Of a DNA stretch of 64,000 nt, positions 7,325 to 61,733 are shown piece by piece. Origin of the DNA: Dicyema japonicum (taxonomy: Eukaryota > Dicyemida > Rhombozoa > Dicyemidae); contig RDEW01000026.1 of the NCBI GenBank assembly GCA_011109175.1, forward strand, positions 214,761-278,760, in the 5' to 3' direction. Every line of letters begins with the position of its first letter. Positions within the stretch are counted from its first letter, which is position 1. The notes beneath the pieces were generated by a model. It saw nothing but the letters and a program-made list of their open reading frames with translations, was not told where the DNA came from and made no database searches. The position numbers and the translations under genes were made by a program.

Positions 7325-7990
7325 AAGCCATCCCAAATGAAGCTCTGGGCACCATTCTAGATAATGAATGCGTTAGAAGTGGTATCTATCTGCGGCTAGG
7401 ACTGAAAGTATGTGTACCTCACCCGTGCCGATGTGGCGTTCTGATAGACTGCTATGGCCTGCACCCTCTCGTCTGCAAGAGGAGTGCTGGCAGATCTCCA
7501 AGGCACAAGGCTCTGAATGAGATTGTCAAGCGGGCTGTGGATGCTGCTGGATACTCGGCCATTCTTGACCCGGTCGGGTTATGCAGAAGTGACGGGAAAC
7601 GACCGGACGGGATGACCATATTTCTCTTCGAGTCCGGGAAACCATTGGTTTGGGACGTGACATGTACAGACACGTTTGCCCCGAACAATCTTCACGAGTG
7701 CGCTTCAAGGGCCTGCTCTGCAGCCGTCAAGGCGGAGAAGGCTAAACTCTAAAAATACGGCGGCCTTCCCGATAATGTCCAATTTGTTCCGCTTGCTATG
7801 GTGACTTCCGGATCCTACTCCCACTCTACACTAGAGTTTTTCGGACGTCTTGGAAACCGGATCACTTCATGCACTGGAGATCTCCGCGAACGCCGCTGGC
7901 TGTTTGAGCGAATTTCGCTCGCAATTCTGAGAAGGAACAGCCACGCAGTGAGGCTGCAGCTAACTGATGTTTCGTTCTTTTTTTGCTCAT
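7325..7990 (+). mobile_element. RLE-type LINE, C-terminal endonuclease copy
   Basis: 5'-truncated. The plus strand encodes the zinc-knuckle region (CHRPCRCGV-like, broken), then MDAAGYSAILDPVGLCRS, KRPDGMTIFLFESGKPLVWD and SLGNRITS-like C-terminal text, all parallel to the copy at 16645-18960. The PD and downstream Asp of the endonuclease are both kept. An in-frame stop lies after KAEKAKL near 7750, so it is dead. It ends in AT-rich sequence near 7990. Confidence 0.85.
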
Positions 7991-9863: not shown

Positions 9864-12800
9864 ATGGCAAATTTTTCAGTTCTGGAAACAAATAAACGAA
9901 AAAACGACAAGGATCTCCAGGATAGCCAGTCAAAGCGCAAAAGGCACATCCTCAACGTTCTCGATTCTGAATTAAGTCAAAAATTTAAAATATACAACCA
10001 TAACGTGTCTGAGTTGTTTTTAAAACAACAAATGAGAGATACTAGTCCAATTTCTCATTTCGACTTCTTTTCACATTGGAAGCTTGACGATGACTTCTCA
10101 TTCACAGAGAAGGCCCTCTTGGTTCTTCCAAATTGTAATGTCATAGGAGAAGGGAATCATGCTGACTCATCCAAATTTAATGAAACGTATTCACCGCATT
10201 AACTTTTAGAAACGGAAACAATCCCTTCTCAGTTCCAGAGTCCTCACCATGAAGAATCCGATGACCCTAGAAATAACAGAACGTTGAATAATGAGAGTCT
10301 GTCGATCCTAGAACGAGCCAAGAAGGTATATTTAAGGTGGTATTTCTAGGATGCGGCTATTCTGAAAAAGGTGGCCCACTTGAGGAAGACAGGACTCTGG
10401 TCTATCAAACAACTCCCTAAAATACGGGAATCCGACAGAAGCAAGTCCCATTGGGACTACCACCTTGAAGAAATGAGGTGGATGGCTAAGGATTTTAAAA
10501 TTGGTGGGAGATGGAAAATAGCTTCTGCCAGTTTGGTTTGTCTCAATGTTCATTAATCTAGGTATCCAATCTGTGCAAAAAGTGTTACTTAAAGACACAA
10601 TTAGATGAGGAAATGACGTATTCAAAGCTTCTCCAAGTAAAGGATACAAACCAAAATGAGTATATTGAGAATTTGGACACAGTTAACTCCGTATATATGG
10701 TTATTAACGGTAGAATGGGGAATCTGATAATATGTCAACTAATTATGCGATGGATAACAACAACTACTCTCACAAATTGGAAATATCTGATAATAGAGAG
10801 CACGTGGTTGTCTGCCAACTGTCACCAACACAGACACGACTGTATAACAGCCAAATTGACAAAATAAGGTCATTTTATTGCTATTATTATAGAAATATGA
10901 CCTCATCTAGTGATTTCAGTGGATTTAACAGCATCTTGTTAGCTTTAATACAAATTTGTGATCATCCTGACTTGGTAGAACAACATACTGTTAGATTTCC
11001 GTTCAGGTCCCCTCAAATAATCCACCAAACCCCCGAATGATCCCAAATATGTTGAATTCCGTCTCAAAAGAAGTAATATTAGTTTTATTATAGAAACCTG
11101 ATATTATTGGGATATTTGGGGATAACCTCTTAGAGATGTGTAGGTACTCCGTCTATGATTTCGATTCAATCAGAAACATTAGATTTGACTTGCATTTTAT
11201 GTTCACAACTGTAACAGCACCTCCCGTTTTGAAGCACGTGGGTGGAGTTGACTTGAATTTGTTGTTAAATTCCGCCTGTTTGGTAGTTTTGTTTCTCATA
11301 GTTAAGAAAACGTGTTCTCTGGTCCGTCACGGAAAGAATACCAATAGGGGTCATCTCCGTAGAAAGAAAAAGACCCTAAAATTAGTTCCGATCGAGCGAT
11401 TTCGAGGATTTTCTCGTAATTTCAAGAATATATACGTCTCACGTAATAGGGGACTGTGGAAAGTTAGTTAAACTATAATCTCAGTTATCCGTGGTTGAGG
11501 ACTTGAGTGGCAATTGGGATGAAGATAAGACAAAGAGATTATCTGCCTCTAATGATCGCAATCATAACTTACGGATTACTCAGCCAATGTACGGCAGAGA
11601 TCTCCTCTCACTAGTAAATGTGTACACGTCCTCTAAAAATGGTTCTTTATCTGTCACCTGTCTCTCGAATGTGGAGGATCTTAACAGTTGTGAGGTTTAT
11701 TTGTCTACCACAACCACTCTGTGGAATATCATAAAGTCTCCATTGTCTTATAAAAATGTCTCAGTTTATAATCAGTATTCAAAAGTGGTCATTTTAGGCT
11801 ATTTTTTGTTGTGAACAGGTTATCTGCGCTCCCACTATCTTAGAGACATCGGGTCACTGCAGAGTATCCACTCAACTGGTTGGGGATGTATATAAAAGCT
11901 TTAACTGTGAGGATATATCAACTAAATTGGTTCCAATCACTGACAGGAAGAGAGTCAAGTTGGTTTGTGGTGAGCTGTCTGTTCTAAAGGTTAGGAAAAC
12001 TACAAATACTTGATGATATTTTAAAACAATTACAAAAAATTAGCAAAAAGCCAGTAATTATTACAAAAATGCACAAAATGTTGGATTTGCTTGAAGAATT
12101 TTTGACCTCATATTCCTATCGATACATAAGAATTGACAATACAACCTACTACAAACAAGAACTGCTAAACATGTTTTGTTGTGATTCCAACTATTTTGTG
12201 CTTATAATGATTGCCAAACCTGGCTATCTAGACATGTCTAGTCTCAACACTGTCATTTTCTATGATCAAGAATGGAGTGACACCTTTGTTGATGGGATCA
12301 CTGATTTGCCTGAATCACTGAGGAATGCTAATATTTATAGGTATTTAGTTTATTAATTAAGACTGTTTAATAAGAACACTGTCGAGGAATGTTTAATTAA
12401 GGCAGCACATGAAGGACGATTTCAGAGAAACAGAAGTGAGGGAACTCATATATCCATTAATGATCACATTTGTAGAATGCTGCAGATTCCAAGAGTTATG
12501 GATGTGAACATTGGGGACACGGATGATAACATGGTAGTTTAAATTATTATATTTAGAAATTTATTGAAGAATGTAGCCCATCTGTTCAGATGGAAATTCA
12601 AGATGAGTCTTCATTTGATTTTGAAAATGATTTCTTTGATGAACAATTTCAAAAATCAGATCAGAATGATCAAGAGATCTACAGATATGACCAAATTGAC
12701 TCATTTGGTAAAGATTTGTTTGTGAACCCACTAATGGACTATGACCCTCAACCTCAAGAATGGGAGAATTATTTTTTTAATCACAAAGATCAGGTTGTTT

Positions 12801-15061
12801 GTTAATTATGACTTTTAGGAACTTGATTTGAATGAATCGGTGGAATTTGTTCTTATTTTTAGGGATTTTACGAATCCGATGATTATATTTACGGGGAGGA
12901 TATCCCAGAAGTATACTTACCGCCAATAGTCCCGGATTCCATTGTTCCTGTTGAAGTAGAACATACTGAACAGATCTATAGAAGTGATTGTAGTTAATCA
13001 ACTTAATTTAGCTGGTGTTTTTACCCGTCGACCAAAGCGATGTGAGAAACATGAACGGAAATTGTCTACTTTTTTCAATCAAGATGGAATTTTGCCTGGG
13101 AAAATAGAACCAAAGCGACGTGGGGACAGAAAACTCCTTCAGACTGTGGATGCCAAACAAGAATGGCTGATTGACGAAGAATGGTCCATTTTACAGGTAT
13201 TTTGATTTGTTGTATTCCCAGACATCGCGTCGACTCCTCATGAGACCAAACCTTCTAAGTTCTTCAATTGCCTCCAATTGGAATTTGAGTTCACATGCGG
13301 TTGCAATAAGGACGGGGTGTGTGGTGTCCTCGAGACTCATTTCGAGTCGGTTCTACTCCACGATTGGTCCTAGGGAAGAAGGGAAGTACCTGACAGAACT
13401 CAACACTCGTAAGGCAGTCAGAGGGAGATTCATAGTTTGACTTTGTCCTCATTTAGTTTCCGAAAACCAATAAGCAGATAAGGACAGATGAACTTTATGT
13501 CAGAGACGACGGATTTGCCATTCAGGACTCAATGGAGAAGGTTATTTCACTATTCTCTGTGGATTCTTTTGAATACAAACGTTTTAATCTCAACGTGTGT
13601 CCACCACCCAAGAACTATTTCATGCCAAAAAGGTCGCTTTCTGTGGAAAAGGTTGAAGCGCACAAAGTAAAACTCCAATCTATTTATGGGAGGCAAATAA
13701 AATTGATATACTTCAATTATATTTGTCATAAACGTCCCAAAAAAGAGGAGAGTACACCCGAAATACTTCCATTTAAGGTTAATTTACTATTTATGAAAGT
13801 TCCAGAGTCTCTGTTTTTCCATTAAAGATGGAATCCTGTTTTTCAAACGAATTACCAAACGATATAGCTCCATTCCCACAAACTTTGTAAAAGATCAAAG
13901 TTGTCGGATAAGATCAAAGCCATACCTTTTGTATTCTACTGCAGTGGGTTGTCTTTTTTATTATATTAGTAGTGGCTCGCTGTAGGTCTAATGCTATTCG
14001 TATGCTGTACTCCATGCAGTACTGTTACTTCCTTTGTCTTGTGGGTTGCGTACTCCCAAAGCAGCAGAAAGGGACTGCTCATTTGGGTGGAAAGAACTAT
14101 CGGTTTCAATCACGGGTACTTTGTTTATTTACTGAAGTATGAGCAGGAGATGATACTGAAACAGCAGTATAGAAGGCAGGTGGAACAACCAGAACAGAAG
14201 GTGTGCCTTTTTATAATAAAATAGAATCCCCGTCCAGTAATGAACCCCACTGCCTATGTAGATGTACTCCTGCTGAATAATTTTTAGGAATCAAAGTACC
14301 GTCAGTATTACACCAAAACATCCCAGGTTCCAGTTCAGTATGTACAAAACAGTCCCAATATGCGTCCAGTTGTTGTTTGATTATTTACTATAGAGTCCTC
14401 TCTATTCTGGTGGATATTCTATCCCCAACTATGTGCCACAGTCTCCTGTTCCTCATCGATCCCCCTTAGGATATATTCCTCGTAACTCATACGCCCATAA
14501 AATACCCCGACAGATGTCAAATATGTACAGTCAAATGTATGACTCGACTGGGTGTATGACTGGCTCCCCTGTTCGGAGAAATTGTGATTGCTGTGGTAAT
14601 TTTAGTATCCTCAGCTTATTTGGAAGAGCAAAGTCGACGAAATAACCAAATGACGGGTTCTATCCCACAGAGAACACAAATGCCTCGTATTTTTTAGTTA
14701 AACTGTGGTAGAGCAAATAAGATCGAGTAATATCAACTTGGTTGGTAGATCGGGGATCCCTGTCCCTACTCTACAAAGGAGGCCGAATTCCGTCATAAAC
14801 AGACCTACATATGTTGGAATGAGCATGTCTAGTACTCCCACACCTACAATTGTGTCTTCAAGTCAGAGACCGATAAGATTGCAAGTAAGTAATAATAATG
14901 GGAATCTCCGTCTTCCAACCTCTGAACCATCTAATCGTAATCAATTGACTATTTCAGTGACTAATATTGGTGTTACTCTCCCTTCTTCAATTTCTTGGCC
15001 TTCCTCTTCTCATCTGGGTATCAATAATCCCAATCACCCTTATTACAACCAATACAGATGA
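9864..15061 (+). CDS. SRCAP/p400/Domino-like (SWR1-family) remodeler lacking ATPase lobe 1
   Basis: Multi-exon gene with tiny introns. Reconstructed introns include 10122-10146, 10187-10209, 10326-10349, 10536-10561, 10691-10713, 11462-11483, 11970-11994, 12341-12361, 12534-12556 and 13197-13221. Spliced domains in order: an HSA helix (about 10350-10535; KSHWDYHLEEMRWMAKDF), which in the family binds actin and Arp4; the tail of helicase lobe 1 (10780-10975; HVVVCQLSPTQTRLYN, ICDHPDL); the long SWR1-type insertion; lobe 2 (11960-12440; CGKLQILDDILKQLQ, KMHKMLDLLEEFL, NTVIFYDQEWSDT, IYRLFNKNTVEE); and a p400-type SANT-like region (13145-13395; EWLIDEEWSILQ, IGPREEGKYL). The tail is Pro/Ser/Gln-rich. 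No Walker A, DEAH or TGTPLQN lies between the HSA and HVVVC, and the HRIGQ motif is replaced by LPESLRN. Relatives exchange H2A.Z in chromatin; this protein should be unable to hydrolyse ATP. Exons near 13690-14400 are uncertain. Confidence 0.88.
10975..11006 (+). other. ultra-short intron, 17 or 20 nt
   Basis: After CDHPDL the frame must change. Both a 20-nt intron (10975-10994, GTAGAACAACATACTGTTAG) and a 17-nt intron (10990-11006, GTTAGATTTCCGTTCAG) restore the same downstream frame (PSNNPPNPRM). Other introns of this gene are 21-31 nt. Confidence 0.6.
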
Positions 15062-16644: not shown

Positions 16645-18960
16645 AGCTGCCGCCCTCACTGCGTGGCTGTTCCTCTCAGAATTGCGAGCGAAATTCGCTC
16701 AAACAGCCAGCGGCGTTCGCGGAGATCTCTAGTGCATGAAGTGATCCGGTTTCCAAGACGTCCGAAAAATTCTAATGTAGAAAGGGAGTAGGATTCGGAA
16801 GTCTCCATAGCAAGGGGAACAAATTTGAAATTATCGGGAAGGTCGCCGTATTTTTCGAGTTTGGCCTTCTCTGCCTTGACGGCTGCAGAGGAGGCCCTTG
16901 GAGCGCACTCGTAAAGATTGTTCGGGGCGAACGTGTCTGTACATGTCACGTCCCAAACAAGTGGTTTCCCGGCCTTAAAGGGAAATATGGTCATCCCGTC
17001 CGGTCGTTTCCCGTCACTTCTGCATAACCCGACCGGTTCAAAAATGGCCGAGTATCCAGAAGCATCCATAGCCCGCTTGACAATCTCATTCAGAGCCTTG
17101 TACCTTGGATATCTGCCAGCGCTCCTCTTGCAGACTAGAGGGTGCAGGCCATAGCAGTCTATCAGAACACCACATCGACACGGGTGAGGTACACATACTT
17201 TCAGTCCTAGCCGCAGAAGATACCACTTCTAACGCATTCATTATCCAGAAAGGTGCCCAGAGCTCATTTGGGATGGCGTTTAGCCAAGCTCCGCTCTCAT
17301 GGGAAGCCCCGAAAGCAAACAAGCGCGTCGGTGCTGATTGGCTATTCCAGTAAGAGTCCAAATGATTTCCAGCACAATAAATTGTCCAGGTTTCGCTGGC
17401 AGTCTTGTGAAGGTGGCAGGGGGAGGTTGTGGCATTCTAGGCTTCTCGTGCGTGGTTATGTCTTGGTCAATTGAGAATTCGGGTAGGGAGTGTAGAATCC
17501 TCTTGACATGGGAGCTACAGCCCACTAGCGATGATAGGTATGAAGGGAGAGAAAGGTCCACAGGGTTCCGAATTCCAAGTCTTCCGGGTCTCACTGGTAG
17601 CGTGGTTTGCTTCCATGAGTAATCCTCGAACCGGACGTTGAAGATACGTTCTGCTGTCGTACGGAAGATCTCGTTAATCTTCGCGAGTTGGTCATACAGG
17701 GTGAAATAAGGAGCAGTCCTCAGGATATATGCAAGCCTCTGTACGTTGAGACTGTTTTTCAGGAGGAATAATGCTGTGTGCATATCAAGTAGACACAAGC
17801 GGTTCAGAGTCTTGCTTCGAGTGACAGTCGTTTTTCACGTATAGCTCTTCCCATTGCATTTATGGTGATCGGGGATCCGAGAATATAAGTTCTTCATCGG
17901 GTGGAAATACTTCCAGGCAGTAAATTTCCGAAACATGACAAAGCTTTTGAATACTTCTCTGAAAGTCCGCAATTGTAGATTTCGCATTTAGTGTAATTTA
18001 ATTCCGCCTCCAACAATGCAGGAATTATCACTTCCAAATCCCGGAAAACAGTATCCGGGGTCCTCCGAGGACCGCATCATCCAGATACCATAGGTTGAGG
18101 GGCGAGCACGGAAGTTTGGTGATTTTCTCTATTGCACGACAAAACAATAGGGTCCAAGGGGATCTCCCTGTTGCACTCCAGAATACGAATGGATTAGGTA
18201 GTCCCCGAAAAGTAAGGATGAAGGTAGACTGTATGACTGATTCACAAAATTCGAAAATATTAGGGCATTTCTCAACACACGCCTCCAGGATATTGTCCCT
18301 TCTTAGACTATTGAAGGCGTTATTGATGTCCAGTTTGACCAGGACATGTCCCCGGGAATCTTCTATTCTGTGGTTTATGAATGTCCTCACTGAATGGACA
18401 GCGGCCTCGCATCCCAAGTGAATACCGACGCCTACTTGAGGGAGGTTCAAGAATTTTGTGACGAGTGGAATAGAATGTCTGGAGGCAATTTTAGTAGCAA
18501 GTCTTCTGAAGACATAGACGTCAGCAACTGGTCGTACTCACCCGCCCTTCTTATTGAAGGCTATCAAATTGGCGGAGAACAGGACATGGCGCATAACTTT
18601 GGGAAGAATTCCAGACATGATCTGATTCATAAGTGAAGTAATTGAATTTGTAAGACGAAGTACCTGGTCTCCTACAGACAAAGAGTTAGATCCTTCAGGT
18701 AGCCATGTCTCATTCTGTCGAACCCGACACTGCTACTAGAGACAAAATTCCGTATTGCGAGGAGAACTTCATCGTTTGATGTAATCAGGGGACTCACTCC
18801 GGATGAGGGAGCGACTTGGCGTAGGTTTTGGGGTGGCAGTGGATGCTTGTTCAGTAAAATATTGTAGGCGTCTGGAGTCGGTTTTCGTGGTCCACTCGAG
18901 GAAAGTGCCCTGATGGCTACCCACCTTCGATTTTAAAATTTACTATATTATTTGTTTCCG
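16645..18960 (-). mobile_element. RLE-type (R2-like) LINE, longest copy
   Basis: Reading minus: N-terminal RT segment near 18930-18700 (SSGPRKPTPDAYN-like); RT core 18450-18028 with VKLDINNAFNSLRRD (motif A) and LWYLDDAVLGG (catalytic YLDD); thumb 17800-17280 with LPVRPGRLGIRNPVDLSLPS; then CCHC-type knuckle text (CRCGVLIDCYGLHPLVC) near 17190-17140; then the restriction-like endonuclease, KRPDGMTIFPFKAGKPLVWD, at about 17020-16960. The CCHC plus (K/R)PD...D pair is the hallmark of early-branching RLE LINEs such as R2. Stops and frameshifts separate these parts, so the copy is inactive. It ends just after RGTATQ at 16656. Confidence 0.88.
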
Positions 18961-19103: not shown

Positions 19104-22100
19104 TTATTTAGTAGAGCAGAGAAGAGCAGTGCCTCTGAAAATCCAGTGATAATTTGGTTCCAAACTCTTCAACCGAATTGAGGCAATAAAATTAATTCCA
19201 GATCTTTGGGGATTTTTGTAAATTGGGCAAACATAAAAACTCTCTTTTATAGCATTAATACTGCTAACTGCGAAAAGACGAATAACAGGCATATCCTCGT
19301 AAATAATCTACAAATATTTATTATAAAAACCTTAAATTTAGATTCTTTAAGACGACAGCGTTTCCTATCCCATCCAGCACCTTCAAGAAACAATCCATGA
19401 ATATACACGCCCTCCGACGCCTTCTCAGAGACTTCGTCTTTGAAAAAGTGCATGACTTGATTGTGCAAGACAGCACAGTCCAAATTCCACCCTTTATGGT
19501 CCCTCACAGATTCCTACACTCAACTGAATTCTAACCTGTAGTACAGCTGTTAGAAATCCCTGAGGATTAAAAAACCCAGGAAGCCAAAAAGATATTGGTC
19601 TGCCATTGTTAAGCCAATCAGAGTACTGTGAACTTCTTTTGACCAATTCATTAATCCATAGAGCAAGTGAATGAGTGACCCAAGAAAACTAAATTGATTG
19701 ATGTAATTAACTTTAATCCATATTTTGGAAACTCGTAAATTATAAATATTATTGAAAGTCTCTTTAAGTTCGTCATTCATCACTATTGTTCCATTAATGG
19801 CCAAAATTAAGTTATCCACAGTTTGCTTGATCAAATTGACTAGTCTTTCCATTCGTTCTAGTTCCTGTCTTAAAAATATAATCATTGGTTGGCCAATCCC
19901 GAATTCATGAAGACGTTGATTTACCTAAAATTTATTACCCACTAACTTCGCCGTAGACGGGTAGAATGGAAAGAATCTCTTTACAAAATCTGAGGACAAA
20001 TGCCTCCTTCGACTCACTACTGTACACATTAGTGTCACTAGGCATCACGTTTACAATACTGGAGAGGCAATACTCAGCAGCATTTCGACAGTATCTATTT
20101 TAATGTTCAACAATACGTTATTTCAGCATTATTGTCAAGTCCAAAAACATGAGGGGAGTCATTGTCAGCAAATTCATTAATTTTTGTCAAAATCTCAATT
20201 TTATTACGGTCTTTAGGATATTGGTAATTGTTAATGTTATAATTTGGACGGAAAATGTGATCACCAAAGTATTTGCTGCAAAATGATATCAAAAGTCTCT
20301 TATCAAAGTCATCAGTCACCCGTCCCCCATACATAATTTCCCCAATCATATAGTGGATGCAGTTCCAAGAAATACCCTACAAAATAAGTTATTTGTAACC
20401 CTTTTGGGATCCACATCGTCCAAATAATTAAAAATAAACTGGACACTGCTGTTAAAGTCGGAGGCATTGAATTCATACGGAACATTCCAACCCAATGGAC
20501 CAAACTTCCTCCTCTCCTGCAGAATACTGTGCATGAAGGCTGTCGTAAATATGAGAGGAGTCCACTGAGTGGACGGCATTGATTCAAAAAAGTCTTCATT
20601 GATCGAATGATAGGTTCTCTTCAAGCCAGCTCGAATACCACACGGAGGTTCAGAAGTGTATTTAAGAGAAATCCGTCTAAAACAATAAATATTACTTGGA
20701 GGAAGTTAATAGGGAATTTATCATGATATTCCGTGGTTATCCAAAGACGGAAATCACTGTGAATATAGTGGGATGGATTTATCAAAATTTGGAGAATAGT
20801 TTCCAAAAAGTCAAAATCCAAGTGGCAATTTTGAAGCAAAACCCAGTTTCCATTAAGCATTGCAGATTGTAATTTCTTAATGGCTATGGTTTGTTGTCCC
20901 TGCCCCATACTAACGGAGGACAAATCTGTTTTATTACAAAATAAGCACCTGTCTCATATTTCTTGGACAGAATATCGATAGATTCAGTAGGGTCAGACCC
21001 AATGGCCAGTATTCCTAACAGCGGGATACGTGACGTTGATTCTTTTAACATTTCTTCAAAGTTGAGGACATTCCCCTCCACATATTTGTCTCCCATGCTG
21101 AATGAGACAAAATCTTTGGCACAGGAAAGCATTCGTTCGGGGAGAAAACATCGAATAAGCAATAATTGTTGGAATTTACTAAGAAATTCAGAGTAACCGT
21201 TTGGAAGTGGTTGTGTTTCAGGAGAATTGTGATCATACCACAATTTCCAGGTTTTCTCGTTATCCTTAATAACATTTATAATTCCTGTGAATTTTTGAAG
21301 TTTGGACAATGACAATAAATTGAGCCAAATGTGATCCTGAATCCAACTAAACTTGTTAGGTTCAACAGATCTTAAATCTAGAGAATCCCCACCTACAAAT
21401 AATTACAAGAGAACCTTTAAGGAAGGTAATATATTCCTCTTTACGAATATCTTTAGCTTTCAAGCCAATTTTCATTACTAATAAAAGAATAAACGTGAAT
21501 TTGTCCTTTTCGAGATATCCCCTAACAGCATGGGTGAAGACGTTATATGTCAAGGTATCTATTATAGTCTGCACTCTTTTAGCCGTTAAAATTTCCTTGG
21601 GAGTCCTAAGTAGATAGAAATTGACTACTTTGTTATGGAACTGACAAAAAGGTTCATAAACTGATCAAGGGATATTGCATACATGCAGTTCACCTGGGAC
21701 ATTTCAAATATTGTAAAGTAAAGAATTGCCCCTCGAATTGCCACATGTCTGTATTCCTCCTCAATATTGTAGATTTTGATTTGAGTTTCTTCAGAGACTT
21801 CTAGTTGGTGACTAACAGTGATCTCTGTCTGTTTAGTTTCCTGGAGTACTTGTAGTAATGTTTTATCCTCTACCAGAGATCCCTTATAACTGTTTAGCAT
21901 AAATACCTTTATACTAATTAATCTTGATAGAAGATTATCCTCGAGTTGTTTTATTAGTAATTTATTATTCATTACTTGATGAACTAACGATATTCTTTCT
22001 TTTTCCAACTCCTCCTGTTCATAGTGAATCACTGACTTGAGCAATTGTTCTTCCAAACCTGATTCAGTAACAGTCATGTCGACTATTGAGGTTTTACTGC

Positions 22101-25100
22101 TTATTTGTGCTTTAAAATTAGGATTTGACAGTTTAGATATCAAATACAGACGAAACCCAGGCATTACGTCAACTTCCTTATCACCAACCTTCACCTATTC
22201 AAATTCAGAATTTACACTACCTTATACATACTCCCTAGTCTCACAAAATTTTTTCCAAAATATTATCCAAAATAGGATCAATCTCTTCTTCAACGTTTTC
22301 TATGATCAATGGATGCCCAAAACTCAACGATTCTTCCACTTTCATACGAAAATTTTTATCGTTAAAAGTTGTTTTAATAAATTCATTGTTTTCTTCCATA
22401 TTCTGATAATACAAAATCATACTTTAATCCACCTATGTCCCTGGTCTTGGGGATCAATCAACAAAGGATAACGTAAAGACTTTACAACTATAAGTCCATT
22501 CGAAATTGACAAATTATCACTTGGAAGTCCCTTTAGATTCCAATCTAGAACCTATGAACTCACACAAGTGACTACAGTTGTTGGCAAAACAAGTTTTTCA
22601 ACAATATCCAAGGATAACTCGAGTGGAATTTGATTATTACAAATTTGCGTTATCCAAATATTTTTGAGATAACTTCTAAAGTCATGATTGAATGGTCCAC
22701 AGTAGAAGTAAATGCACTACAGAGAGTAATGTCCCCAATAAGTCTATTTTATTTTATAACCAAACTTTTCAATTTCATCTTCAAAATCCTTTATCTGTTG
22801 AGTCCAACGACCTTTTTCGCCTTCCAGTCCATTAATGAGAATTTGAGCAGTGTTCATTTTATTTCTGCAGTCATTAGCCTCATTAATTAGTCTCTAAACT
22901 ATGAAATAATGATTACTGACCATCTTCTCCCCAACTGCTCTATCATACATTTCTCTAACCACTGCAAGTTCATGTTCCTTCTCGTCCAATTGAGATTGTG
23001 CAGTAGTCAGGTCTTTATTAGCCAATTCCAATCGAGCTTCTTGAATTACTAAATTTTCCTATTATTGGTAATCATTTAATACTTTCAAAGGAAGCACCTC
23101 TTTGTTTATTACGTAAAAATAACACATTGCCTTCGTCCATGACAAAAGTCCGGCCACGTTTCCACACACTTTTCTCGCATTAGTGATGTTATAGTCCTCC
23201 ATTCTCATGTAAGGCTCTAAAAGTTCCACAATTTCATCATTTATTATATCCTTGGCAAAGTTCTGCAGCATTTGAAGTAATGATCCTGCTGACATGAACT
23301 GTACACTATATGACAATTTACCTTCAGGGACTCACTCCATGACAGATTTATGAATTTTTTCTCAGAATTATAGACCACCTGGTTTAATTTCATACGAAAG
23401 AGAATTAAGACACAGTCCATTATTCTCATTATCAAATGTGGAGGTTTTGGAAGTTTTCTGACGGTGGCAATATCTTGAATTTATGGAAAATATAAACCGC
23501 TAGGTTTTATAGTGTTTAAAGCAGCTTCGGCTTCTTCTAATGCAGGCTTTGCTTCTAAAAGCCTCTCTTCTGCTATCTTTCTGTCTTTATCAATACTATC
23601 CACAATATTCTGGGCTTTGTCTTTCACTTTCTGAACTTGAGTCTTGACAACTTCAGCCAATGAAGCTTTTTCTTTAACTTCAATTAAAACCTAAAATTAA
23701 AACAACGATACGTTTTCAGCCTTTTCAGACGCTACAACTAATTCTGCCTCCATTACTTCCAATTCCTTACTTAGAACTTCGATTGCAGATGATGCTTCCA
23801 CTAACTTTTTAATTCCGTCGCTCATTTTTGTTTTTTCGTTTGTGACTTCCCAGAGTTTATCCTTGTACGTTTCTTTAAACAACGTCAAAAAAGAAAAATA
23901 TGATTTTGGAGTCACATGCACTACACGACGAAATCTACATTTTAATAAATTTTAACTTTTTAAAGTATTCTTGTGAACCCTCGACCACCGATTCGTGAAT
24001 AGTACCCATAAGTGAGACCAAATTCTGGAAAGTTTTATTGGAACAGTTTAATTCTTTAAAATCCTTCAAATAACGATTGGCGACAGAAAGCAAGGCATTC
24101 TTGGGCCAACTGTGAAACCAAACAACAGTACATCCGGATATGAGACCGGAGAATCTTAAAGATCTAACTCTCAGAGTGTCCCCAGCCTAATTTGATATCC
24201 AAATTAAAATACAGGAGAAAAGCATAATGCTACATGCAAATTCTTTCTTACTCTGTGCATAAAGTATTCACGAAGGCTATTAAGGGTAGGTACTCTCTTA
24301 GGGAACTCCTTCCTCATTATGTGGGTCAGGTTACTGTTTATTTCTACAACTTCTTCAGATGTGAATAAATCGGAAATCTAAAATTGATAAATTGAAATAT
24401 TTACAGTTCCACAAGATAACATGTTGTTTATTGGCTCTAGAAAAGTCTCGTCTTTAATATCTGTTTCAGAAAAAATGAAAGTGATGCCTCTCCCATCCAA
24501 GCCTGCAACCAGGTAGAGTACTTTCAAGTCTTCCATGAGGTCAGTTAAACCATAAGATCTTAAGTAAAAGGAAAACAGAACCTGGATAGGGAGATTTGAT
24601 AAGTTTTATAACCTGCTATAAACGATGCCAATTTGGTTAAAGACTTTCGCCCAGATCCATCAATTCCGACAAGGAGAATGTGTCCTCTCTCTAGTCTCAT
24701 TATTCTTGATATTTTTATTATATTAGTTATGGCTTCATCAAAGAAAACCAAGTCAAGGCCGGATCCACGAATTGTCTCATTATAACTACACATTTGTATT
24801 TCAAGGTTCTCCCTGAGAATGTTAATATCATAAATCTTAAATTACAGGAATAAATACAGGAATATATGGCAAACATAACTCAGAATCAAGGTCATCATTT
24901 CCCTCATATTCAGAACTAATGTAGAAATAAGAGGATAACTTGATAAAATTAGCAAAATAGACATCATCTACAAGTTTTAGGTCTCCAAACTCGCTGGCAA
25001 TTGCTGATGTCAAAAGATTAGAAAACCATTTGCATTCATCCTTGTTGATAAATCTGTTTTAATATTTTCTATTACCTGTCTGCAAACACTCTCATACATT

Positions 25101-28100
25101 CATGTCTCCACAAAAGTAGTAGATTTTCCTTATTTGTTACAACGTCTGGGGTGGAACAGGTCAATCCTTGCCAAATCCTCGACAAATCACGGAGGTTGAA
25201 CACATAGTGGAATTTAGCAGGGGAAGGAAGCATTTTATTCTAAATTTGAAATCCTCGGATGTACTTTGAGTGATTCCCATACATTTCTAGTCATCACAAT
25301 GACTTTATCGATTGAAGTGAGAATATCCTTAGAAAATTTCCGCCCTTCAGTAAAGTAGGTATTTGCTATCGTTTTAAAAATTTTGTCTATAGACATCTCC
25401 GTTGGTAAACATGCATTAAAGATACAAAACTGTCGTTTCAACCTCTCAGGGATATCATTTCGACCTCCTCCAGGAGAGATCATTGAACATATAAACTATA
25501 TAACAAAATCACCATACCTGAATATCTACAATATTGCAAAATATTCCAGGCTTATCTAAACTGTAGAAGCCACCTGTTTCCATGAGCTGCCGTGTGAGTT
25601 CATTTGTGACTTGATCCCCCCATTCATTAATTGAAGGCATATTGATATCATCTATGAAAAAAGTCATCTTCTTTCCACTGGGAGGGCCATATGTAGTTCC
25701 TACGCGTTTATCGACGTTTGTTTCGATCACTCTCTAAAGTTAAGTTCAAAATTGACAACTTGGAATATTTGAGGCGTTGTATAGTATGAAAAGTTAACTG
25801 TGGTCACAAAATGACTCTCTGGGTCGTGCTTGCTCAAATATGAGTTAATTGTGACTGTTTTGGCTGTTCCTTGGTCCCCAGTTAAGAGAACTCCCTTGCC
25901 TTGAATAGCTATTAGTCCAATCAAATATTCCATTCTAACACTGTCCAGATTGGGAACAAGTATTGAGTTATATTCATTAAAATCAGTCGTCAAAACAATT
26001 TTATTTTCCACAATATTTTCAAAATGCTTCCATTCACACATTTCATTAATAAAATATTCAAAAATTGACGAATCAGACAAATCTAATGTAGGCAAGTCCA
26101 AAGATTTGTAATAATTTTTCATAATAAATTGACTGAGTTTATTTCTGTCCTCGTTATTCAAAAGACTCCCAAAACTCCAAATGATTGAAAAAGTGCATAA
26201 TCGTTTAAATGTCCAGGAAGAGTACATTTTAGTATCCTGTCGAATAAGCAATCCATCAAAGATATCACAAGCCTAAATATTCATGAAAATGACCTGTCGG
26301 AGAATGAAAGACTCGTAAATTGGGATTTTCAAGTGTAGTTGTTTATTCGTATATTCAAAAATTCCATGAAAGCAATCATTAAAACAATCTGCAATAACCT
26401 TATTTTCTATCAAAGTGTTTTTACCAAGCCAACTCTTAAATTTATAATAAATTAAAACCTGAAATTGGGGTTCCCAACCAAGACCTAATGAACTAAAGTA
26501 AACAATTCCATTTCTTGAAACGGTCGCTGGTGAAGCATTATCAATGTTGTGGACTTCAAAAATTAACTTACAATTCGGAGACATTGGAATTCTATCACCA
26601 TTTGCCAATGTTAGTGTCTTGTTGTCATCCAAAACAGAATTAAGGTTCTCGATCCACAACGAATCAACGGGACCATCCAGAATAATCCAAAGATATTCGC
26701 CTTTTTTAATATTGCTAGCTTTTCTCCACAAAGTTGAAAAAATTCCATCAGTCCAGTCATTAGTTGATACATTCAGTTTTCCAAACATCTGAGATGATGT
26801 TATGGCTTTTGGGTTCATTTTATAGTCTCTATAAATATTTCCATTTGTCGACAAAGCCTTCATTAGGACTTCAATACAACTACTCTTTCCTGTTCCACTC
26901 GACCCCAAAGTAATGATCCCATGCCTCACCATTTGAGTCTCATTAAGCTGAGGATAAGACAATTTAAAACCTGAAATATTTTGTTGACCCAAGGTTGGTG
27001 GTAAATATATTTATTATTCGTAATTACCTCTCTGATAGAATTATTTAGGTAAATGTTTTCATTTTCTTCCAGAGTTAACGAAGGGAATAGTCCTGTGATT
27101 AAAGATTTAAAAAGAGGTTCATCAGCATCCACCAATTTGGACAAATTCATATCAACCAATCCTTTCATAACTACAATTTCCTCAGCCTTATCTGGGTTAG
27201 ATCTCTTTGAAGTACCCAAAGTCCGCAGAACTGAAAGCATATTTCTCAACCCAAAATCATAATGGACCTGCATTATTAAGAGACTACTTGTTTAGACAAC
27301 AACTCTTCACATAGTTTGTAAAGAGTGAAAAACTTTCGTGCAAGGTCTATGTTATGGATGAATCCAATTGAGGCCAACTTAACCCGAATTATTATTTGTC
27401 TGTCGGGAATCATCATGGAAATTGTTCGAAATTAATTTTTAGATTTTCTGGGAGTTCCTGTCGACCAGCGTAACCGGGATTCTATAAATAATCAAAATCA
27501 TAAACCATCGTCAAGAAAATTCCAAATTCGTAGTTAAAATTGACAACATCTCCATCTGTGAATATTAACATTTTTTTCCTTTTCTTTTTAAAGTTGAGAA
27601 CCACAGATATTTGTTGGGCAGCCACAGACAACACAGAAAGCTCAATTCTGTTAAACTCATCAAAACAGCCCCAAGTGCCTGACATGGCCAAACCTATAAA
27701 CTATAAAACTAAGTTTAAAAACCTTTAAATATCCTCCCAAGTCCAATATAGTCCATCTGATCAGAACAATTGAACACAACAACGTATTTTCCAATGCAAT
27801 GCCCCATATCTTTGGTTGTTTCAGTTTTCCCAGTTCCAGCAGGTCCAGCGGGGGCAGCACCCATTGAAAGTCTAATTGCCTGTGCGATCGTAATATAACA
27901 TCTTTAATAAAAGAAATCAGAACCTGTCCGTAAGTGGAGTTACTACAAGACGTTCAGTACACCCAAGATATTCATTTTGATAAGTAAAGTTAACATCAGT
28001 TATGGAAATGGAGCATGTCTTTGTGTTGCTATCAAAATAAAAACGAGTCTGTTTAGTCCATTCAAAATCACTAATAGACCTTACATTAGCACGACACTAA

Positions 28101-61651: not shown

Positions 61652-61733
61652 GCCAACATGGCCGAGCGGTCTAAGGCGGCAGCTTAAGGTGCTGTTATCT
61701 TCGGATGCGTGGGTTCGAATCCCACTGTTGGTA
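61652..61733 (+). tRNA. tRNA-Leu (anticodon AAG)
   Basis: An 82-nt tRNA with a long variable arm. Acceptor arms GCCAACA and TGTTGGT pair; A box TGGCCGAGCGGTCTAAGG; anticodon loop TTAAGGT closed by GCAGC/GCTGT, giving anticodon AAG (reads CUU, and CUC if A34 is modified); B box GGTTCGAATCC. No intron. A T-run (61734-61741) follows as Pol III terminator. Confidence 0.95.

What the first reader, a model, noticed from the sequence alone, without database searches (positions are those of the whole stretch)
9864..13395. SWR1-family remodeler (SRCAP/p400/Domino-like) with ATPase lobe 1 missing and lobe 2 motifs lost
Splicing tiny introns gives a continuous frame from the HSA domain (HLEEMRWMAKDF) through only ~75 residues to the end of lobe 1 (HVVVCQLSPTQTRLYN), then lobe 2 and a p400-type SANT-like region. 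In the family roughly 300 or more residues holding Walker A, DEAH and TGTPLQN stand between HSA and that point; 10562-10790 has no room for them. In lobe 2, SGGxGxNL is replaced by KPGYLDMSSL and HRIGQ by LPESLRN. Losing both halves of the ATP site while keeping HSA, SANT and an open frame suggests a scaffold pseudo-ATPase, or a very recently dying gene.
Basis: partly seen in the sequence, partly recalled or inferred. Interest (0 to 1): 0.88.

Follow-up and report, generated by a model that had tools for sequence, protein, structure and literature searches.

The report
Chromatin remodeler stripped of its motor
In a genome that is probably from a dicyemid (a tiny parasite of octopuses), one of two sister chromatin-remodelling genes has lost its ATP-driven motor but can still be read from end to end and keeps domains that its relatives use for docking, so it likely serves as a scaffold for a histone-acetylating complex while the sister gene keeps the motor motifs.

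Summary
It has an HSA domain, an SWR1-family insertion, a remnant lobe 2, an EP400-type SANT-like region and a Ser/Pro-rich tail. ATPase lobe 1 is absent: HSA to lobe-1 end is 105 residues, against at least 452 in 86 of 86 relatives. Motifs V and VI are lost (2 of 25 conserved positions kept, 46 of 100 elsewhere in lobe 2).

A second SWR1-family gene (contig C152) keeps all ATPase motifs and shows no SANT. The two are each other's closest match in the insertion and share four intron sites: in-lineage duplicates. Four of five SANT-bearing mollusc Domino records also hold the ATPase, so the ancestor probably did. I read the window gene as an Eaf1-like, ATPase-free platform for TIP60/NuA4.

Against this: three EP400-TRRAP contact residues are lost, expression and dN/dS are untested, and C152's HSA has two in-frame stops, possibly from gene conversion.

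The parts
9864..15061 (+). whole gene model: 26 exons, 25 GT-AG introns of 17-31 nt, 1,535-aa open frame, stop TGA
   Evidence: chance control; single copy in the genome
9864..10325 (+). exons 1-3, N-terminal and pre-HSA region; FSHWKLDDDF segment shared with the C152 paralogue (FSHWKLEDDF)
   Evidence: blastp 2e-26 over N-terminus and HSA
10350..10535 (+). exon 4, HSA domain (Pfam PF07529 positions 5-54 of 71; C-terminal part missing or unrecognisable); keeps the R/K/H triad equivalent to EP400 R807, K809, H811
   Evidence: (9e-10)
10536..10794 (+). site of the lobe-1 loss: 26-nt intron, linker exon 10562-10690, 23-nt intron, linker up to aa 270; no lobe-1 sequence found
10795..10989 (+). end of lobe 1 / start of lobe 2 (REHVVVCQLSPTQTRLYN ... 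ICDHPDL)
11007..11969 (+). SWR1-family lobe-2 insertion; much closer to C152 than to 24 other family members
11995..12533 (+). lobe-2 remnant (aa 632-804), hydrophobic core kept; the exon-11 model matches SRCAP, INO80 and SWR1 lobe 2
12216..12245 (+). degenerate motif V (KPGYLDMSSL in place of SGG.G.NL)
12306..12326 (+). degenerate motif VI (LPESLRN in place of HRIGQ)
12557..13154 (+). post-motor region and linker, weakly similar to mollusc Domino
   Evidence: aa 804-1135 vs Crassostrea Domino, 9e-16, SANT included
13155..13395 (+). EP400/DOM-A-type SANT-like domain (EWLIDEEWSILQ ... PREEGK), split by the intron 13197-13221
13457..13777 (+). region after the SANT, aligned with the mollusc post-SANT region (position of the EP400 hydrophobic domain)
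14225..15061 (+). Ser/Pro/Asn/Gln-rich tail (P 12.2%, S 14.2%, N 10.2%, Q 7.3%)

Best explanation
This gene encodes a Domino/EP400-type protein that lacks ATPase lobe 1 and the lobe-2 ATP motifs, and it likely works as an Eaf1-like scaffold that holds a TIP60/NuA4-type acetyltransferase complex together without remodelling nucleosomes itself. Shown: domain order, missing lobe 1, lost motifs V and VI, the open frame, single copy, and a closest-kin gene in the same genome (C152) that keeps the full set of ATPase motifs. Inferred: an ancestral Domino gene with ATPase and SANT in one protein was duplicated in this lineage; C152 kept the ATPase (DOM-B/SRCAP role), while this copy kept the pre-HSA/HSA dock for the ARP module, the insertion and the SANT tail, and lost the motor. 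Predicted, untested: it binds actin/ARP/DMAP1 through its HSA and RUVBL1/2 through its insertion, tethers the acetyltransferase and perhaps TRRAP, and binds no ATP.
For: EP400 is the top PDB match of the first 1,145 aa (1.7e-39), with HSA, lobe-1 end, lobe 2 and SANT in order. Lobe 1 absent. Motifs V+VI keep 2 of 25 conserved positions against 46 of 100 elsewhere in lobe 2 (p = 2.3e-4), while C152 keeps 24 of 25 and 85 of 100. C152 has Walker A, TGTPLQN, AGG.GVNL and HRIGQ and matches SRCAP at 1.6e-302; no SANT found at its locus. The window insertion scores 246 with C152 and at most 75 with 24 other family members. Four introns match C152's in position and phase. Four of five SANT-bearing mollusc Domino records also hold Walker A, motifs V and VI, two of them HSA too. 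The pre-HSA triad R/K/H that contacts DMAP1 and the post-motor domain in human TIP60 (PMC11995519, passages) is kept. Members of EPL1, MOZ/SAS, TIP49/RUVBL, YL1, DMAP1-SANT and TRRAP families are in the genome. Published: Drosophila DOM-A acetylates H4K12 without its ATPase activity, and yeast Eaf1 is an HSA-SANT protein (PMC7239659, passages).
Against: No expression data and no dN/dS. Of five EP400 SANT residues reported to contact TRRAP, the three I could place (H2397, D2406, R2413) are not kept. The HSA match covers only Pfam positions 5-54 of 71. The whole protein evolves very fast: a tree gave it a branch of 10 changes per column and could not place it. Pfam calls no SANT, EP400_N or ATPase domain above cut-off. 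At the 28 most conserved HSA positions the window keeps no more than C152 (19 each). TRRAP evidence is one match over cut-off (1.3e-10) and one below it. Which MOZ/SAS gene is KAT5 and which EPL1 hit is EPC was not worked out.
Confidence: 0.62

Rival explanations
1. The gene is a decaying paralogue (pseudogene in progress): constraint was lost after duplication and the frame happens to be open still.
For: Very fast evolution, loss of TRRAP-contact residues, and the genome contains decayed fragments of the sister gene (C146, C117, C120).
Against: No stop or frameshift over 1,535 codons in the model, while the C146 fragment, only 7-8% diverged from C152, already lacks most of lobe 1 and has gained stops and small gaps. 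Losses in lobe 2 concentrate at ATP motifs.
Confidence: 0.2
2. Split remodeler: the window protein supplies HSA/SANT and C152 supplies the motor, and the two polypeptides together make one functional enzyme or complex, because C152's own HSA is broken.
For: C152's HSA has an in-frame TAA and TAG (read from the sequence; one search reports the TAG). The window HSA is closer to relatives than C152's in 72 of 86 comparisons (46.0% vs 38.7% median) and C152's lobe 2 is closer in 86 of 86.
Against: The C152 stretch with the stops is almost identical to the fragment C146 although the flanks differ by about 7%, so gene conversion or a polishing artefact could have put them there. At the 28 most conserved HSA positions both keep 19.
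Confidence: 0.1
3. Assembly artefact: about 1 kb holding lobe 1 is missing from the contig.
For: No reads were available to check.
Against: Motifs V and VI are lost outside the gap; the gap is bridged by two standard-looking introns and an open linker exon; no N in the window; no orphan SWR1-type lobe 1 among the lobe-1 matches of the genome.
Confidence: 0.03
4. A regulatory decoy that competes with C152 for shared subunits (DMAP1, RUVBL, YL1), damping H2A.Z exchange rather than building an acetyltransferase complex.
For: It keeps regions that dock subunits shared by both complexes in relatives, and its TRRAP contacts are altered.
Against: It also keeps an EP400-type SANT-like domain and tail, which a decoy would not need.
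Confidence: 0.05

Closest known systems
Domino isoform A (DOM-A) of insects, mollusc Domino, vertebrate EP400
   Same: HSA, SWR1-type insertion, lobe 2 order, SANT with PREEGK, low-complexity tail; sequence matches to EP400 and Crassostrea Domino in order.
   Different: The relatives keep the ATPase; here lobe 1 and motifs V/VI are gone. Human EP400 has its own motif changes (IDSPLHN, SRTTGINL, DRIGR) but keeps both lobes.
Yeast Eaf1/Vid21 (NuA4 platform; also AtEAF1 of plants)
   Same: HSA and SANT with no working ATPase between them (Eaf1 architecture from PMC7239659, passages; AtEAF1 from the title and abstract start of PMC4358907 in the listing).
   Different: The window protein keeps a lobe-2 remnant and the insertion, so it was probably reached from a full Domino ATPase by loss, not inherited from Eaf1.
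SRCAP / Swr1 / DOM-B
   Same: Shared HSA, insertion and lobe 2; the C152 paralogue belongs here by sequence.
   Different: These are H2A.Z-exchange ATPases; the window gene lacks all of lobe 1.
HDA2/HDA3-type SNF2-like lobes (Pfam PF11496)
   Same: A lobe-2-like domain without catalysis (that statement is recalled); below-cut-off Pfam match 1.5e-4.
   Different: A full Domino protein hits the same model (P0044, 7.9e-4), so this is similarity of the lobe, not membership.

Membership tests
SWR1/INO80-family ATPase (SNF2 superfamily) | ATPase lobe 1 with Walker A and DEAx box | tested here: not met
   105 residues between HSA and lobe-1-end anchors vs at least 452 in 86 relatives; no lobe-1 match in the gap
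SWR1/INO80-family ATPase (SNF2 superfamily) | lobe-2 motifs V (SGG.G.NL) and VI (HRIGQ) | tested here: not met
   2 of 25 conserved positions kept
SWR1/INO80-family ATPase (SNF2 superfamily) | long insertion in lobe 2 | tested here: met
   about 290-residue insertion homologous to C152's
DOM-A / EP400 | HSA domain before the motor | tested here: met
   Pfam HSA 9e-10, positions 5-54 of 71
DOM-A / EP400 | SANT domain after the motor with the PREEGK end | tested here: met
   (EP400 1709-1783, i-Evalue 1.9e-4 for this stretch)
DOM-A / EP400 | complete ATPase | tested here: not met
DOM-A / EP400 | TRRAP-contact residues in the SANT | tested here: not met
   H2397, D2406, R2413 equivalents differ; H2464 and K2469 not placed
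DOM-A / EP400 | pre-HSA residues contacting DMAP1 and post-motor domain | tested here: met
   R, K, H triad kept; same in 86 of 87 relatives
Eaf1-type platform | HSA and SANT without an ATPase | tested here: met
   but a lobe-2 remnant and insertion remain
Eaf1-type platform | assembles NuA4/TIP60 subunits | not testable with these tools
   needs purification; six partner families found in the genome
pseudogene | stops, frameshifts or broken splice sites | tested here: not met
pseudogene | no expression, neutral dN/dS | not testable with these tools
   no RNA data; no sister-species orthologue found

The most novel reading that the evidence does not exclude
A fused Domino remodeler was split back into two genes: one keeps only the motor (C152, HSA interrupted), the other only the scaffold (this gene). 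Together they re-create the yeast Swr1/Eaf1 division in an animal and work as complementary halves.
Probability: 0.13. Interest if true: 0.88.

Novelty: new variant of a known kind. Interest (0 to 1): 0.68.

Why it matters
In Drosophila the DOM-A isoform builds a NuA4-type acetyltransferase complex that does not need its own ATPase activity, and the authors say the principle might be conserved across metazoans (PMC7239659, passages). A lineage that duplicated Domino and deleted the motor from the SANT-bearing copy would be evolution's own test of that idea. It would be a convergent return to the yeast Eaf1 layout, and would make separable what the EP400 ATPase and the EP400 scaffold do. In five targeted paper searches (listed titles and abstract starts only) I saw no animal EP400/Domino protein without an ATPase.

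Tried and rejected
A phylogeny of lobe 2 plus insertion (26 rows) could not place the window gene (branch length 10, no supported group); a first attempt at its input kept only 6 of 24 chosen relatives and was replaced. I used direct similarity of the insertion and shared intron sites instead. A protein database search with the window protein (residues 1-1060) gave 15 hits among 4,745 candidates, mostly CHD proteins and a few HSA/SNF2 proteins, and no orthologue; the database only compares proteins of similar length, so long EP400 proteins and other motorless homologues could be missed. I considered a strict reciprocal decay (window HSA conserved, C152 HSA decayed): median identities point that way, but the 28 most conserved HSA positions do not (19 kept in each), so I do not claim it. 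A post-motor motif test was uninformative (1 of 87 relatives matched my pattern). The structure model of one lobe-2 exon has modest confidence (mean pLDDT 65.9) and was made with its relatives in the alignment, so its PDB matches (SRCAP, INO80, SWR1) are weak support. An rRNA search to help name the organism did not complete and was not repeated; the dicyemid label rests on genome size, GC and intron length only.
Full report
WHAT WAS CHECKED. The window lies on contig C111 of a 64.67-Mb, 191-contig eukaryotic genome. Reading 9864-15061 with GT-AG introns of 17-31 nt gives a single open frame of 1,535 aa in 26 exons ending in TGA. Introns are more A+T-rich (72%) than exons (61%). The species itself was not identified.

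IS THE OPEN FRAME REAL? Because tiny introns can hide stops, I asked whether any 5,195-nt sequence can be opened with introns of 17-32 nt. None of 200 dinucleotide shuffles could (median reach 152 nt), nor any of three antisense frames. The forward frame shifted by 1 could (an early intron restores the frame), shifted by 2 could not; 3 of 96 other readings (48 window chunks, both strands), which may hold other genes, could. An automatic model with a codon score recovers 15 of my 25 introns exactly and opens the same stretch, so the gene is firm and some single junctions are not.

WHAT IT IS. Against solved structures, human EP400 is the best match of the first 1,145 aa (1.7e-39), with HSA (aa 117-217), the end of lobe 1 (266-344, weak), lobe 2 (616-778) and SANT (979-1050) in the same order; SRCAP follows at 7.5e-38. 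Pfam finds HSA over its cut-off (9e-10) and lobe 2 only below cut-off. Against Crassostrea Domino the matches are HSA 2e-22, insertion plus lobe 2 2e-27, and post-motor plus SANT region 9e-16.

WHAT IS MISSING. From HSA 'HWD' to the anchor at the end of lobe 1 there are 105 residues; in the 86 relatives that carry all anchors (of 120 listed of 3,519 hits; 34 dropped) the minimum is 452 and the median 622.5. Lobe 1 of C152 or Crassostrea finds nothing in the gap. In lobe 2, 125 columns are at least 90% conserved in those 86 relatives. In motifs V and VI the window keeps 2 of 25 such positions, elsewhere 46 of 100 (Fisher one-sided p = 2.3e-4); C152 keeps 24 of 25 and 85 of 100. Constraint was thus lost preferentially at the ATP site. 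A model of one lobe-2 exon (114 aa, mean pLDDT 65.9, built with relatives in the alignment) has SRCAP, INO80 and SWR1 chains as its best PDB matches (3.8e-4 to 8.4e-4).

THE SISTER GENE. At E up to 0.05 the genome has four HSA places: the window, C152, C146 and one on C181, the last a BRM-like gene by my reading. C152 encodes a complete SWR1-type ATPase, matching SRCAP at 1.6e-302. The window SANT finds nothing there (best E 5.5) in L025 and L039, but L025 reaches only 2.8 kb past the C152 stop, so a distant or very divergent SANT exon is not excluded. C146, C117 and C120 hold fragments of the C152 gene, 92-94% identical (one short piece 83%); the C146 fragment is decayed and lacks most of lobe 1. 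The window gene itself has no second copy. A search with Crassostrea Domino shows no further intact Domino (22 matches, 21 of 64 candidates scored). The other SNF2 loci read, by eye, as CHD, ISWI, INO80, RAD54, BTAF1, ATRX and similar genes.

WINDOW AND C152 ARE IN-LINEAGE DUPLICATES. The window insertion aligns with C152's at score 246 (35 s.d. over shuffles); the next best of 24 other family members scores 75. C152's own next best is the metagenome protein P0034 at 205. They share an N-terminal segment (blastp 2e-26) and four intron positions with phase, one of them offset by three columns at a small gap, among 11 window introns in the compared part. Mollusc Domino proteins show the likely starting point: of five mollusc records with a SANT (P0018, P0025, P0042, P0044, P0052), four also hold Walker A with motifs V and VI, and two of these (P0025, P0044) HSA as well; the records that lack a part may be incomplete. 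In all, 10 of 120 listed proteins matched my SANT patterns. The inferred history is duplication of a full Domino gene, then loss of the motor in one copy and of the SANT tail in the other. The tree could neither confirm nor reject this.

LIKELY MECHANISM. In human TIP60, EP400 is the scaffold: pre-HSA and part of HSA bind DMAP1, actin and BAF53a; the insertion and motor make up the BASE module with the RUVBL1/2 ring; SANT and the hydrophobic domain bind TRRAP (PMC11995519, passages). Drosophila DOM-A forms a NuA4-type complex whose H4K12 acetylation does not need its ATPase, and placing the DOM ATPase between the HSA and SANT of yeast Eaf1 does not affect its function (PMC7239659, passages). 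The window protein keeps the R/K/H triad of EP400 R807, K809 and H811 (numbering from the offset between the EP400 chains). All seven partner families that I searched have members in the genome: EPL1, MOZ/SAS acetyltransferases at four places, two TIP49/RUVBL genes plus fragments, YL1, DMAP1, TRRAP and zf-HIT (a broad family, and ZNHIT1 belongs to SRCAP rather than TIP60). These are family matches; single orthologues were not sorted out, and I did not test H2A.Z. So the best reading is an ATPase-free platform of the Eaf1 kind.

AGAINST IT. The SANT equivalents of H2397, D2406 and R2413, which touch TRRAP in the human complex, are not kept, so TRRAP docking may be altered or lost. The HSA match stops at Pfam position 54 of 71. 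The protein evolves too fast for tree placement. There are no transcripts and no orthologue for dN/dS. C152 carries two in-frame stops in its HSA, in about 310 bases that differ from the C146 fragment at two places while the flanks differ by about 7%. Whether this is gene conversion, an assembly error or a real loss of HSA from the ATPase copy is open, and it decides between a simple division of labour and a split enzyme.

VERDICT. Observation confirmed; gene boundary corrected to 15061; interpretation partly supported and made specific. New variant of a known kind: an animal DOM-A/EP400-type paralogue without a motor.

Noticed in passing
G000:C152:41040-41300 (L025), outside the window: The HSA of the ATPase-bearing paralogue carries an in-frame TAA and TAG, inside about 310 bases that differ from the fragment copy C146 at only two places although the flanks differ by about 7%: gene conversion from a pseudogene, or an assembly/polishing artefact.
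   Followed up: partly
G000:C146:194130-197123, C117:294447-295873, C120:13310-13723: Partial copies (mostly 92-94% identical) of the C152 SWR1-type gene; the C146 copy lacks most of lobe 1 but keeps HSA and lobe-2 pieces.
   Followed up: partly
protein P0034 (metagenome contig of 5,448 bases): A 1,631-aa SWR1-type protein encoded on a 5.4-kb contig whose insertion is the second-closest to C152 (score 205, after the window's 246); its source organism is unknown.
   Followed up: no
window 7327-7752 (+) and 16659-17228 (-): Two similar open stretches (CRCGVLIDCYGLHPLVCKRSAGR...) that look by eye like the end of a mobile-element reverse transcriptase, one on each side of the gene.
   Followed up: no
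window 20887-27010 (-): Open stretches that look by eye like a dynein heavy chain gene (P-loop [10 protein letters not shown] and stalk-region segments).
   Followed up: no
G000:C111:160454-164161 (L007) and C126:68644-72363 (L008): Two related SNF2-type loci that read by eye as ERCC6/ERCC6L-like; both show stops in the family match, which may be tiny introns or decay.
   Followed up: partly
window 61652-61733 (+): A tRNA gene (Rfam RF00005, 54.5 bits).
   Followed up: no
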